A stretch of DNA of 37,149 bases from Anaeromyces robustus (Eukaryota > Neocallimastigomycota > Neocallimastigomycetes > Neocallimastigales > Neocallimastigaceae): positions 120,001 through 157,149 of the forward strand of contig MCFG01000124.1 of the NCBI GenBank assembly GCA_002104895.1. Reading direction: 5' to 3'. The notes below the pieces were generated by a model that saw only the letters and a program-made list of their open reading frames with translations, was not told the origin of the DNA and did not search any database. This document shows positions 23,045 to 29,367 of the stretch, piece by piece. The position numbers and the translations under genes are program-made. How positions within the stretch are numbered: the first letter of the stretch is position 1; every line of letters starts with the position of its first letter.

Positions 23045-26000
23045 TTATAAATTTTCATAATAACCTGTAAGAATTTCTATACCACTATTTTCAAATTTTG
23101 AAGGAATTGATTTAATATCTTCATTATTTCTTAAATCTCTATAGAACAAATTAATTATAATATGAAAATTAATTAAAATATAATTATTATTATTATTTAT
23201 TATTATTATTATTTATTATTATTTATTATTATTATTATTATTATTATTATTATAAGTTATTATATTATAAAATAATATTATAAATTAGTTATTATAAGTA
23301 ATATATATTTATTTAAATATTTACATTAAGTTTTTTAAGTTTCATAATTCCAGATGGAATATCTGTAATTTTGTTGTTATATAATATTCTATATATTAAT
23401 TTGATTATTTAATTTTTTAAAACAAAATACAAGAATATTATTTAAGGAAATATTAAATTATTATAAAATGTAAATGACGAAAATATTTTAATTAATTTAT
23501 TAGTTTATCAATATTATTAACTAATTATTATTATTCGTTTTTATAAATATATAAATATTTACAATTCTTGAAGATTATAAAATTTCAAAAATCCTGTAAT
23601 TTTAGATAAGTTATTATTACTTAAATCACTGTATATTGTAATGTGTTGAGTTGATTTTTTCATTTTTTATTATAAAAATTAGAATAAATATAATAAAATA
23701 AATATAAAAATTAGAATAAATATAAAAAATAAATATAAAAATATTTTAAATGGAAAAATAAATTTAAAAAATAAATATAAAAATATTTTAAATGGAAAAA
23801 TAAATTTAAAAAATTAATTATTATAATTATCAATATTTACAGTGATTTAAGATTTTTAAGTATATTTAATGGATATGGCATAGTAGAAAATGAATTTTTA
23901 CCTAATAATCTATATATTAATTTAATTAATTTTTTAAAAGAAAATACAAAAAAAAATATATTTAAGACAATATTAAAATATTAGAAAATTGTAAATGATA
24001 ATAATATTTTTAAGTGTATTTTCTCTTTTTTTAATTTATTAATATTACTAACTAATTATTAGAATTCGTTATATAAATATTTACAATACTTCAAGATTAC
24101 TTAAATCGTCAAGTCCTTTAAAATTTTCTAAACCATTATCACTTAAATCTCTGTATATTGCAATGAGTTGAGTTGATTTTTTCATTTTTTATTATAAAAA
24201 TTAGAATAAATATAATAACATGAAAATAAAAATATTTTAAAAGGAAAAATAATTTCTATTAAAAAATTAATTATAACTATAAATATTTACAATGATTTAA
24301 GTTGTGTAAGTTTCAAAAGTTCAGATGGTACTGTAGATAATTTATTTCCACTCAGTATTCTATATATTAATTTAATTAATTTTTTAAAATAATATACATA
24401 CAAAAACATATTTAAGATAATATTAAAATATTAAAAAATTATAAATGAAAATAATATTTTAATTTTATTTTATTCTTTTTTTTAATTTATCAATATTATT
24501 AACTAATTATTAATATTCTATTTATTATAAATATTTACAATACTTCAAGACTTCTAAGTTTCCAAATATCTTCAAGGTTAATTGAAATATTATTACTTAA
24601 ATTTCTGTAAAATGATGTTTATTGATTTAATTAGTTCATTTTTATAATAAAATTTAGAATAAATAATAAAATAAAAATAAAAATTATTTTTATTTGAAAA
24701 AAATTTTTTATTAAAAAATTAATTATTATAATTTATCAATATTTACAATGATCTAAGTTTATTAAGTTGCTCAAGTCCAGAAGGTATTTCAGATAATTTA
24801 TTTCCACTCAATGATCTATATATTAATTTGATTAAACAATTTTTTAAAAGAATATACAATAATATATTTAAAATATTTGAAAATTGTAAATTAAATAATA
24901 TTTTGAACTTTATTTTTTTTTGTTAAAATTTATCAATATTAATTAATTATTAATAGTCATATTTATAAGTAATTTACAGTTCTTGAAGTTTACTAAGTTT
25001 ATTAATTTCAGAAAATTTAACTAACATATTATTATTTAAATCTCTGTATAATGAAGCATATTGATTTTATTATTTTATTTTTTATAATAAAAATAAGAAT
25101 AAATAATAAAATAAAAATAAAAATATTTTAAATTTAAAAGTAATTTTTATTAAAAAATTAATTATTATAATTATCAATATTTACAATGATTTAAGTTTAT
25201 TAAGTTGTACAAGTCCTGACGGTATATCAAATAATCCATTTCCACTCAATGATCTATATATTAATTTGATTAAATAATTTTTTAAAAGAATATACAATAA
25301 TATATTTAAGACAATATTAAAATATTAGAAAATTGTAAATTAAATAATATTTTGAACTTTTTTTTTGTTAAAATTTATCAATATTAATTAATTATTAATA
25401 GTAATGTTTATTAATAATTTACAATTCTTGAAGATTACTAAGTTTCTCAATATTTGGAAAGTCATCTAATCTATTATTACTTATATCTCTGCATAATGAA
25501 GTATATTTATTTGATTATTTTATTTTATAAAATAAAATTTAGAATAAATTTAGTAGATTAAAAATAAAAATATTTTAATTTGAAAAAAATAAATTGGTTT
25601 AAAAATAATTAATTATTTTATTTATAAATATTTAATCGTTAATATTCATATCTATATGTACTTACAATTTCAAAAGGTTTGTCAAATTAGTAATCCCGGT
25701 TACATCTTTAACATAACAATCTTTTATTGTTCTTCATAATGTAATGCATTAAATTTATTTATTTGTATTTCAAATAAAAAATAAATATATTATAAATAAA
25801 TAAATAAATAAATAAATAAATAAATAAATAAATAAATAAATAAATAAATAAATAAATAAATAAATAAATAATACAATTATTATTTTTTTTTTGTGATTTT
25901 TAAATGTAATGAATATATATTTAAAAATATAAAATCAAATAAAAATATAACAATATATATCTATACAAAACTAATTAAAAATGACTATTATATTATGATT

Positions 26001-29000: not shown

Positions 29001-29367
29001 TTTATTATATATAAACATACAAATCCTTTAAAGAAGTTATACTGAAAATATTATCTGGAATACCACTACTAAAATCTTGATTATTAATTAATCTATATAT
29101 AAAAATAATTTATAAAAAAAATTAATGATCCATTTTAATTATAGATATAAATTAAATAATTGAAATATATTTAATAATTATTAAGAATATATTTATATTA
29201 TTGATTACTAACAAAGAATATATATTTCCATTTTCATCAGTTTTACATTGAAAATTATCATTACCACATGAACTGCAAATTTGTTTTTTCACTTTGTTAC
29301 ATGTAAGAGTTGCTGCAAGAGCAACTGAAATATATGATAAAATAAATAATAAGAATTTTATATTCAT
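23045..29367 (-). CDS. Secreted leucine-rich-repeat protein, ~26 exons, one LRR per exon
   Basis: The start ATG at 29367 gives MNIKFLLFILSYISVALA, a signal peptide. Minus-strand exons: 29213-29367, 29021-29092, 28729-28797, 28498-28566, 28275-28343, 27987-28055, 27757-27825, 27488-27547, 27206-27331, 26997-27068, 26765-26833, (26457-~26508, acceptor unclear), 26193-26318, 26034-26105, 25666-25731, 25423-25488, 25185-25253, 24978-25043, 24747-24815, 24539-24604, 24291-24359, 24085-24150, 23841-23909, 23563-23628, 23325-23388, 23045-23138. Introns are phase 2 throughout except after 23325. About 640 residues are predicted: three Cys modules, three cap repeats and some 19 LRRs. No transmembrane or GPI tail is seen, so it is secreted or wall-associated. 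LRRs usually bind ligands; no partner can be read. The last junction is out of phase (see findings), so the true C-terminus is uncertain. Confidence 0.82.
23325..25253 (-). repeat. Tandem array of exon pairs with introns (~440-520 bp period)
   Basis: 69-nt class exons start at 25253, 24815, 24359, 23909 and 23388, each followed by a 66-nt class exon (the last by the terminal exon). Introns share recognisable sequence, for example the stretch just upstream of each 69-nt class exon (GATCTATATATTAATTTGAT on the plus strand, with variants) and TTAAGACAATATTAAAATAT. Exon, intron and spacing are all reiterated, so whole genomic segments were duplicated. Confidence 0.8.
25797..25868. repeat. (AAAT)n microsatellite in an LRR gene intron
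   Basis: About 18 copies of the tetranucleotide, within the intron between exons 14 and 15. Confidence 0.9.
26457..27331 (-). other. LRR gene supermodule 2 (exons 9-12)
   Basis: Exon 9 (126 nt) is a Cys module without signal peptide (CYSCDELKNQICPSCNGDDF, then C and KIYHL). Exon 10 (72 nt) is a cap repeat, NNQDFSSGIP again. Exon 11 (69 nt) is an LRR (LYLLNDKISSIPETIGNLIN). Exon 12 resembles exon 8 (NCLESIPNTIDNENVSV) and has a phase-2 donor, but I cannot find its AG acceptor. Confidence 0.72.
26564..26680. repeat. (ATT)n microsatellite in an LRR gene intron
   Basis: About 39 copies of a trinucleotide, in the intron between exons 11 and 12, just upstream (in transcription) of the exon whose acceptor is missing. 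Confidence 0.9.
27668..27797 (-). repeat. 65-bp perfect tandem duplication over an exon-intron junction
   Basis: The block from ATATAATAAAACTTTTTACT to TTTCATTAGGAACT occurs twice in a row, with unit length 65 bp. It covers the 3' half of LRR exon 7, its GTAAGT donor and the start of the intron, so the gene has two identical donors 65 bp apart. Confidence 0.88.
28929..28996. repeat. (ATT)n microsatellite in an LRR gene intron
   Basis: About 22 trinucleotide copies, in the intron between exons 2 and 3. Confidence 0.9.

What the first reader, a model, noticed from the sequence alone, without database searches (positions are those of the whole stretch)
23045..29367. One LRR per exon, with every intron splitting the same leucine codon
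Of about 26 exons, nearly all internal ones are 60, 66, 69, 72 or 126 nt, all multiples of three, with phase-2 introns at both ends. The split codon is almost always TT|A (Leu) at the repeat boundary. Any exon can therefore be skipped, duplicated or shuffled without changing frame or breaking the repeat register. This is seen in the sequence. That it is used to make variant binding surfaces by splicing or by recombination is inference.
Basis: partly seen in the sequence, partly recalled or inferred. Interest (0 to 1): 0.78.

Follow-up and report, generated by a model that had tools for sequence, protein, structure and literature searches.

The report
Gut-fungus gene, one repeat per exon
In a rumen fungus, a leucine-rich-repeat protein is encoded with about one repeat per exon and nearly every intron cutting the same codon position, so repeats can be gained or lost without breaking the protein; this layout is known in other lineages, and its use by splicing here is untested.

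Summary
The window is Anaeromyces robustus DNA: contig lengths and exact mapping of annotated proteins identify it. My model of the minus-strand gene 29367-23045 has 25 exons. Of 23 internal exons, 22 are multiples of three (69 x10, 66 x6, 72 x3, 126 x2, 60 x1); one is 64 nt. Of 23 countable junction codons, 19 are TT|A and 21 Leu. It is not unique: genome-wide, an acceptor giving phase 2 before an LRR core occurs 300 times against 4 in the control; the neighbouring phase-0 and phase-1 offsets show no excess. In the predicted fold of an annotated paralog all 16 phase-2 split codons lie in LRR beta strands. Introns are similar at even lags only, so module 3 grew by duplicating a two-exon unit of about 445 bp; paralogs have 2 to 11 exons there. 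Germline exon gain and loss are supported; alternative splicing and somatic shuffling are untested. Positive selection is not shown, and this copy may be decaying. The layout is known from brown-algal ROCO, Tetrahymena and vertebrate NLR genes; my paper searches turned up no fungal report.

The parts
29213..29367 (-). E1, 155 nt: start codon, signal-peptide-like start (my reading), Cys cap 1
   Evidence: a 155-nt first exon also in P0001 and P0004
29021..29092 (-). E2, 72 nt, phase 2-2, cap repeat (LINNQDFSSGIP...)
28729..28797 (-). E3, 69 nt, phase 2-2, one LRR
28498..28566 (-). E4, 69 nt, phase 2-2, one LRR
28275..28343 (-). E5, 69 nt, phase 2-2, one LRR
27987..28055 (-). E6, 69 nt, phase 2-2, one LRR
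27757..27825 (-). E7, 69 nt, phase 2-2, one LRR
27668..27797 (-). exact 65-bp direct duplication (27668-27732 and 27733-27797) taking in the 3' part of E7 with its donor
27488..27547 (-). E8, 60 nt, phase 2-2, short closing LRR of module 1 (junction GT|A)
27206..27331 (-). E9, 126 nt, phase 2-2, Cys cap 2
26997..27068 (-). E10, 72 nt, phase 2-2, cap repeat
26765..26833 (-). E11, 69 nt, phase 2-2, one LRR
26457..26506 (-). remnant in intron 11 of the 63-nt closing exon of module 2 (NCLESIPNTIDNENVSV); its start and acceptor are missing
   Evidence: intact 63-nt exon in P0001 and P0241
26193..26318 (-). E12, 126 nt, phase 2-2, Cys cap 3 (junction with E11 TT|T)
26034..26105 (-). E13, 72 nt, phase 2-2, cap repeat
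25666..25731 (-). E14, 66 nt, phase 2-2, LRR
25423..25488 (-). E15, 66 nt, array unit 1a
25185..25253 (-). E16, 69 nt, array unit 1b
24978..25043 (-). E17, 66 nt, array unit 2a
24747..24815 (-). E18, 69 nt, array unit 2b
24539..24604 (-). E19, 66 nt, array unit 3a
24291..24359 (-). E20, 69 nt, array unit 3b
24085..24150 (-). E21, 66 nt, array unit 4a
23841..23909 (-). E22, 69 nt, array unit 4b
23563..23628 (-). E23, 66 nt, array unit 5a
23325..23388 (-). E24, 64 nt, array unit 5b, five bases shorter than its 69-nt sisters; breaks the frame if spliced in
   Evidence: same in contig C566
23045..23138 (-). E25, last exon, partial LRR and short tail, stop codon 23047-23045
   Evidence: similar last exons in C89 and C358
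23768..25634 (-). tandem array of a two-exon unit, period 445 bp, 4.2 copies by TRF

Best explanation
This is a gene for a three-module leucine-rich-repeat protein, probably secreted, of the gut fungus Anaeromyces robustus. It belongs to a genome-wide class of LRR genes in which a repeat is one exon bounded by phase-2 introns that cut a codon at one fixed place in the repeat's beta strand. Arrays grow and shrink in the germline by unequal exchange or tandem duplication of whole exon-plus-intron units; in the window the recent unit is a pair of exons (66 + 69 nt, about 445 bp). Because phase and place of the introns are constant, each event leaves reading frame and repeat register intact, so the repeat number of a binding protein can change quickly. 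Shown: anatomy, phase, co-duplication of introns, exon-number differences among paralogs, scaffold constraint in the sampled loci. Inferred: that the product is secreted, binds something, and that new repeat numbers matter for binding. Alternative splicing is possible but neither needed nor tested.
For: Gene model with 22 of 23 internal exons symmetric phase 2. Genome-wide only the phase-2 acceptor offset is enriched: 300 v 4, against 2 v 4 and 47 v 53; the two-sided exon pattern gives 388 v 45. Exon finder in the window and 20 fetched loci: 320 exons in phase 2-2, 0 in 0-0, 0 in 1-1 at score >= 0 (loci mostly chosen by the phase-2 pattern, only symmetric exons of 57-75 nt tried). Annotated proteins map exactly: P0001 16 of 18 introns phase 2, P0004 12 of 12 and P0018 14 of 15, P0241 30 of 33 over residues 1-1025 of 1053. 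All 16 phase-2 split codons of P0001 lie in beta strands of its model, 14 of 16 at the second strand residue. Among window introns 14-23, 18 of 20 even-lag pairs and 0 of 25 odd-lag pairs exceed z 6. Exons of the module-3 array: 10 in the window (E24 counted), 6 in C89, 2, 4 and 11 in the three C358 genes. In 52 pairs using each exon once, scaffold codon positions 1+2 diverge 0.41 of the intron expectation, CI 0.30-0.54.
Against: No transcript evidence. The window gene is not among the listed protein hits near 100% identity (these see only lengths of 0.55-1.75 of the query and the best 120 hits), and carries a frame-breaking 64-nt exon, an exon remnant and a partial duplication, so this copy may be decaying. 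In the window array scaffold positions 1+2 are at 1.08 (66-nt) and 0.70 (69-nt) of expectation, so constraint there is weak. Exposed positions evolve at about the neutral rate in the sampled loci (1.06, CI 0.88-1.23), no sign of selection for new surfaces. Clustering of array exons by gene is weak: nearest neighbour in the same gene 7 of 18, P 0.12, for 66-nt and 7 of 14, P 0.025, for 69-nt exons.
Confidence: 0.82

Rival explanations
1. Alternative splicing: the exon modules are skipped in different combinations in the living fungus, making families of isoforms from one gene, as reported for brown-algal ROCO genes. Not exclusive of the best explanation.
For: All single and block skips tried keep the frame. 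Skipping the 64-nt E24 gives the 620-residue product with the normal end; including it gives 615 residues ending early. Another gut fungus, Pecoramyces sp. F1, was reported with alternative-splicing rates of about 45% and 22% at mid and late growth (PMC6414434, passages). Brown-algal ROCO genes with this layout have splice variants (PMC11378527, passages).
Against: Frame symmetry follows from exon duplication alone. No RNA was examined. Annotated models that differ from my exon lists (P0018, P0241) are predictions and may be gene-finder errors.
Confidence: 0.25
2. The window copy is a decaying pseudogene of the family; the layout is inherited, not used here.
For: 64-nt E24 shifts the frame; closing exon of module 2 reduced to a remnant; 65-bp partial duplication at E7; no near-identical annotated protein in the listed hits; scaffold positions 1+2 of the array at 1.08 and 0.70 of the intron expectation.
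Against: The other 22 internal exons are all open and symmetric; second codon positions of scaffold residues in the array differ in 0.06-0.07 of comparisons against 0.14-0.17 expected. The shift at E24 costs only the end of the protein.
Confidence: 0.3
3. Introns were inserted many times, in parallel, at the same site of a formerly intronless repeat array, for example by an introner-like element.
For: Intron-poor LRR genes exist in the same genome, such as the 616-residue open frame on C384; 69-nt and 72-nt classes share the same cut.
Against: One inserted element would make neighbouring introns alike; here 0 of 25 odd-lag pairs exceed z 6 while 18 of 20 even-lag pairs do.
Confidence: 0.06
4. 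Programmed somatic recombination of LRR exons makes a repertoire, as raised for brown algae (cited in PMC11378527) and as in lamprey variable lymphocyte receptors (recalled).
For: Modularity and many similar exons elsewhere in the genome.
Against: The second assembled copy of this locus, on contig C566, has the same exon order and differs in exons only within E1; it is probably the same DNA, so this is weak. No recombination signals or enzymes were looked for.
Confidence: 0.03

Closest known systems
Brown-algal LRR-ROCO genes (PMC11378527, abstract and passages; Zambounis et al. 2012 cited there, not held)
   Same: One LRR per exon, phase 2, nearly constant exon length (72 bp there; mostly 69, 72 and 66 here), exon turnover.
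   Different: No ROC or COR domain found here; Cys caps, and CotH or weakly DM9-like tails in paralogs; splice variants reported there, not tested here; fungus, not alga.
Tetrahymena 90-bp-exon LRR genes (PMC6564038, abstract and passages)
   Same: Tandem arrays of equal-length exons separated by phase-2 introns, grown by duplication with introns, a large gene class.
   Different: Exactly 90-bp exons there. LINE neighbours are frequent there; here LINE-like pieces flank the gene but enrichment was not tested.
Vertebrate NLR and other human LRR gene families (PMC6642158, abstract and passages)
   Same: Frame-preserving LRR exons whose boundaries lie at one position in the beta sheet.
   Different: 28-29 residue repeats in NLRs, two alternating repeats in one exon in NLRPs; here 22-24 residue repeats, and the alternating 66/69 nt repeats sit in two exons.
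Gonadotrophin-receptor LRR exons (as described in PMC11378527)
   Same: Introns of the LRR part all phase 2, similar-sized exons.
   Different: Receptor with a seven-helix domain (recalled); Pfam finds none here.

Membership tests
LRR superfamily | Pfam LRR families above cut-off | tested here: met
   residues of E1-E23 (590 aa): LRR_4 E 2.1e-44, LRR_8 E 1.3e-37, LRR_1 E 3.7e-22
LRR superfamily | solenoid of strand-turn-helix coils | tested here: met
   for the paralog P0001, residues about 20-415; the spliced window protein was not folded; best fold matches are LRR proteins
Exon-modular LRR genes (one LRR per exon) | repeat-length exons | tested here: met
Exon-modular LRR genes (one LRR per exon) | uniform intron phase | tested here: met
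   E24 excepted
Exon-modular LRR genes (one LRR per exon) | boundary at a constant place in the beta strand | tested here: met
   paralog P0001: 16 of 16 in strands, 14 of 16 at the same strand residue
Exon-modular LRR genes (one LRR per exon) | alternative splicing of the LRR exons (reported for some members) | not testable with these tools
   no RNA data
LRR-ROCO | ROC and COR domains | tested here: not met
   (E <= 0.001): LRR-named families and one sub-threshold methyltransferase model only
NLR receptors | NACHT or NB-ARC domain | tested here: not met
Plant LRR receptor kinases | kinase domain in the same protein | tested here: not met
Tetrahymena-type LRR genes | exons of exactly 90 bp | tested here: not met
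Tetrahymena-type LRR genes | association with a LINE retrotransposon | tested here: inconclusive
   LINE-like hits in the window, L014, L026 and L030 of 22 sequences searched, L013 among them; genome density search not answered

The most novel reading that the evidence does not exclude
A rumen fungus carries a genome-wide, rapidly turning-over class of secreted LRR proteins built from interchangeable one-repeat exons and joined to different tails, and splices them combinatorially to vary what it binds: a fungal counterpart of the brown-algal ROCO candidate receptors.
Probability: 0.18. Interest if true: 0.82.

Novelty: new member of a known kind. Interest (0 to 1): 0.52.

Why it matters
It puts exon-modular LRR genes in a fungus. 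If they arose independently of those in algae, ciliates and animals, which was not tested here, the phase-2 cut in the LRR beta strand is a repeated evolutionary solution. An organism with hundreds of such exons lets one test directly whether this layout is only a record of exon duplication or is used by splicing.

Tried and rejected
One search used a pattern spaced wrongly by one base; void (23 against 32 control), repeated. In one search the last exon had a wrong acceptor, and it lacked its stop, so the skip test there gave 0 of 22; both were put right. P0241 was first mapped to a neighbouring paralog (poor score) and then to its own locus.

A dN/dS argument for diversifying selection in the window array was tried and not kept. 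Pooled NG86 dN/dS is 2.7 and 1.4; after base-composition correction exons differ 1.3-1.9 times as much as introns, third codon positions included; pN exceeds a neutral simulation based on the introns (0 of 400 runs reach it for both exon types), but the pN/pS ratio does not (78 of 400 and 250 of 400 runs reach it). In 52 pairs from the sampled loci exposed positions 1+2 are at the neutral rate, 1.06, while exposed third positions are at 1.48. Intron divergence may be underestimated because gapped columns are left out and because pairs were chosen for similar intron flanks.

Contig C566 was first taken for a second allele; all 30 differences from the window (compared from 22001 to 29523) lie beyond 25881, towards the C566 contig end, and most are short indels, so an assembly duplicate is more likely; L013 was left out. 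P0003 (908 residues, LRR plus GH1, one open frame on a 3043-base contig) could be a spliced transcript or an intronless gene; not used. Structure matches have TM-scores of 0.23-0.31 by query length in the 50 listed, so they serve for fold class only.

Paper searches (open-licence papers only) listed nothing on such genes in fungi, judged from titles and starts of abstracts; two searches listed 15 of 51 and 10 of 4,037 papers.
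Full report
WHERE IT IS. The window lies in a 70,169,043-base genome of 769 contigs, at C29:120001-157149. Proteins named Anaeromyces robustus report contig lengths of 214375, 104048 and 56745, equal to contigs C601, C171 and C358 here. P0001, P0004 and P0018, and residues 1-1025 of P0241, map onto those contigs exactly, split codons included, as the scores show. The host is therefore A. robustus, an anaerobic gut fungus of the Neocallimastigomycota (lineage).

THE GENE. On the minus strand a 25-exon model runs from the ATG at 29367 to a stop ending at 23045. 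E1 encodes a hydrophobic start, which I read as a signal peptide (inference; no predictor was run), and a Cys-rich cap. Three modules follow, each beginning with a Cys cap (E1; E9 and E12, 126 nt each) and a 72-nt cap repeat (E2, E10, E13). Module 1 has five 69-nt LRR exons and a 60-nt closing exon, as in P0001 on C601 (155, 72, 69 x5, 60, 126, 72). Module 2 has one 69-nt exon and, in the 446-nt intron 11, a remnant of a 63-nt closing exon; P0001 and P0241 have five 69-nt exons and an intact 63-nt exon there. Module 3 has a 66-nt exon, then five pairs of 66- and 69-nt exons, the last member (E24) being 64 nt, and a last exon with similar counterparts in C89 and C358. Pfam, run on E1-E23, finds LRR-named families and one sub-threshold other model.

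PHASE AND JUNCTIONS. 22 of 23 internal exons are multiples of three and symmetric phase 2; 19 of 23 countable junction codons are TT|A and 21 of 23 are Leu. With E24 left out, 22 of 22 single skips, 253 of 253 contiguous block skips, 22 of 22 single duplications and 1000 of 1000 random orders stay open to the normal stop. With E24 in, the product ends after 615 residues; without it, after 620. Contig C566, a second assembled copy, is identical to the window from 22001 to 25881, E24 included, and differs in exons only within E1. It is probably the same DNA, so this is weak support that the 64 nt are real.

NOT A LOCAL ODDITY. Genome-wide, an acceptor AG placed so as to give phase 2 before an LRR core is found 300 times (control, the pattern read backwards, 4), for phase 0 2 times (control 4), and for phase 1 47 times with a pattern one letter shorter (control 53). 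A pattern with both splice sites gives 388 against 45. In the window and 19 loci (L013 left out), 199 of 264 LRR cores outside open frames of more than 110 residues have an AG at the phase-2 offset; 45 have one two bases nearer, 43 of these together with the phase-2 AG, and 45 have no AG in reach (9 of 273 cores set aside). A scoring matrix trained on such exons finds 320 in phase 2-2 and none in 0-0 or 1-1 in the window and 20 loci; only symmetric exons of 57-75 nt were tried. Those loci were mostly picked by the phase-2 pattern, so searches are biased; searches are not, though they test only three neighbouring offsets. At score >= 10 there are 296 exons: 69 nt 199, 72 nt 67, 66 nt 20, 60 nt 7, 57 nt 2, 75 nt 1.

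ANNOTATED GENE MODELS. P0001: 18 introns, the first 16 phase 2, the last two phase 1. P0004, an LRR-CotH protein: 12 of 12 phase 2. P0018: 14 of 15. P0241, close to the window gene in architecture (three capped modules): the first 30 of 33; its tail runs into a reverse-transcriptase stretch (PF00078) and looks like a fused gene model. P0002, P0016, P0027, P0062 and P0113 were not mapped. Whether these models rest on RNA is not known to me.

STRUCTURE. The AlphaFold2 model of P0001 (7 sequences, mean pLDDT 70.8, below 50 from residue 424 on) is an LRR solenoid up to about residue 415. All 16 split codons of its phase-2 introns lie in beta strands, 14 at the second strand residue and 2 at the fourth; strands make up 76 of the 382 residues considered. 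An exon thus carries one coil from strand to strand. The best fold matches are LRR proteins such as Leptospira LIC10831 (E 2.9e-17) and human SHOC2, with low TM-scores.

HOW THE ARRAY GREW. Tandem Repeats Finder reports a 445-bp period over 23768-25634. Among introns 14 to 23, 18 of 20 even-lag pairs and 0 of 25 odd-lag pairs exceed z 6 against 30 mononucleotide shuffles. The two other pairs above z 6 in the gene, I2-I11 and I11-I24, I put down to TTA microsatellites without testing it. So the unit is two exons and two introns, which speaks against one intron type inserted into every repeat. Across the sampled loci 510 exon pairs share a homologous intron flank. Paralogs differ in the number of array exons: by the lists I used, with E24 added, 10 in the window, 6 in C89, and 2, 4 and 11 in the three C358 genes; gene limits were set by me from the cap and last-exon hits. 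Nearest neighbours fall in the same gene in 7 of 18 (P 0.12) and 7 of 14 (P 0.025) cases, so expansion within each gene is only weakly supported by exon sequence alone.

SELECTION. In 52 pairs in which each exon is used once, codon positions 1+2 of scaffold residues differ at 0.41 of the intron-based expectation (CI 0.30-0.54) and of exposed residues at 1.06 (CI 0.88-1.23); third positions are at 0.68 and 1.48. In the sampled loci the exons thus behave as translated in the modelled frame with the scaffold kept and the surface drifting. In the window array the picture is less clear: scaffold positions 1+2 are at 1.08 (66-nt) and 0.70 (69-nt), with second positions alone low (0.06-0.07 against 0.14-0.17), and exposed positions 1+2 at 1.81 and 1.63; but the pN/pS ratio is within a neutral simulation. 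I do not claim positive selection, and constraint on this copy is uncertain.

WHAT IT MAY DO. Relatives carry CotH (P0004, P0016), a weak, sub-threshold DM9 match (P0001) or a long tail without a convincing Pfam match (P0027 at E <= 5; P0062 at E <= 1e-5). The most economical reading is a family of secreted or surface binding proteins whose repeat number changes by exon duplication and loss. The ligand is unknown; plant wall, bacterial partners or the fungus's own surface are guesses. No hit from another named gut fungus is among the 120 listed, which were capped lists.

KNOWN OR NEW. The same principle is described for brown-algal ROCO genes (72-bp phase-2 exons, exon shuffling, splice variants), Tetrahymena (90-bp exons, phase 2) and vertebrate NLRs (boundaries at one place in the beta sheet). 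No paper on such genes in fungi was listed, judged by titles and starts of abstracts. Word searches in the main text of two gut-fungus papers give 0 for LRR and leucine (PMC6712302 and PMC5622200); a third names one LRR receptor-like gene in a table of regulated genes (PMC6414434). I file it as a new member of a known kind, in a kingdom for which I found no report.

Noticed in passing
window 20738-21334 (-) and 31483-35574 (-): LINE-like retrotransposon pieces on both sides of the gene (weak, sub-threshold RVT_1 match in 34540-35574; a second partial copy at 32717-33498). Similar hits in L014, L026 and L030. Resembles the Tetrahymena association; enrichment not tested.
   Followed up: partly
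window 14383-19632 (+): Open frame of 1749 residues with two ABC-transporter stretches and an ABC-2 membrane domain, ABCA-like by my reading.
   Followed up: no
window 5961-6509 (-) and 10147-10884 (+): Two small Cys-rich open frames with similar-looking Cys motifs and a hydrophobic stretch near the end, no Pfam match at E <= 0.01; possibly related to each other, not compared.
   Followed up: no
L033 (C183:20001-30000), and C183 up to 38252: Very long array of phase-2 LRR exons: 25 in the first 10 kb (23 of them 69 nt), more listed beyond.
   Followed up: partly
L016 (C17:131001-141000): 40 LRR exons, all of 72 nt, in 10 kb: the 24-residue, plant-like LRR class has the same phase-2 cut.
   Followed up: partly
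C80:64443-81013: Listed LRR exon hits recur about every 3.4 kb, about five groups: a larger duplication unit than in the window.
   Followed up: no
L013 (C566:16001-24187): End of C566 repeats the window over the part compared, 22001-29523, at 99.6%, with differences only towards its contig end: probable assembly duplicate.
   Followed up: yes
C384, C519, C252, C321, C190: LRR matches in open frames of 144 to 983 residues, most over 350, occur in the same genome: intron-poor LRR genes; the 616-residue C384 frame shows no Cys cap to my eye.
   Followed up: partly
P0003: 908-residue LRR plus GH1 protein from a 3043-base JGI contig, 55% identical to P0001 over 55% of it: an LRR-glycosidase fusion, cDNA or intronless gene.
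   Followed up: no
P0241 (C358): Annotated A. robustus protein that fuses an LRR gene with a reverse-transcriptase stretch: probable annotation error.
   Followed up: partly
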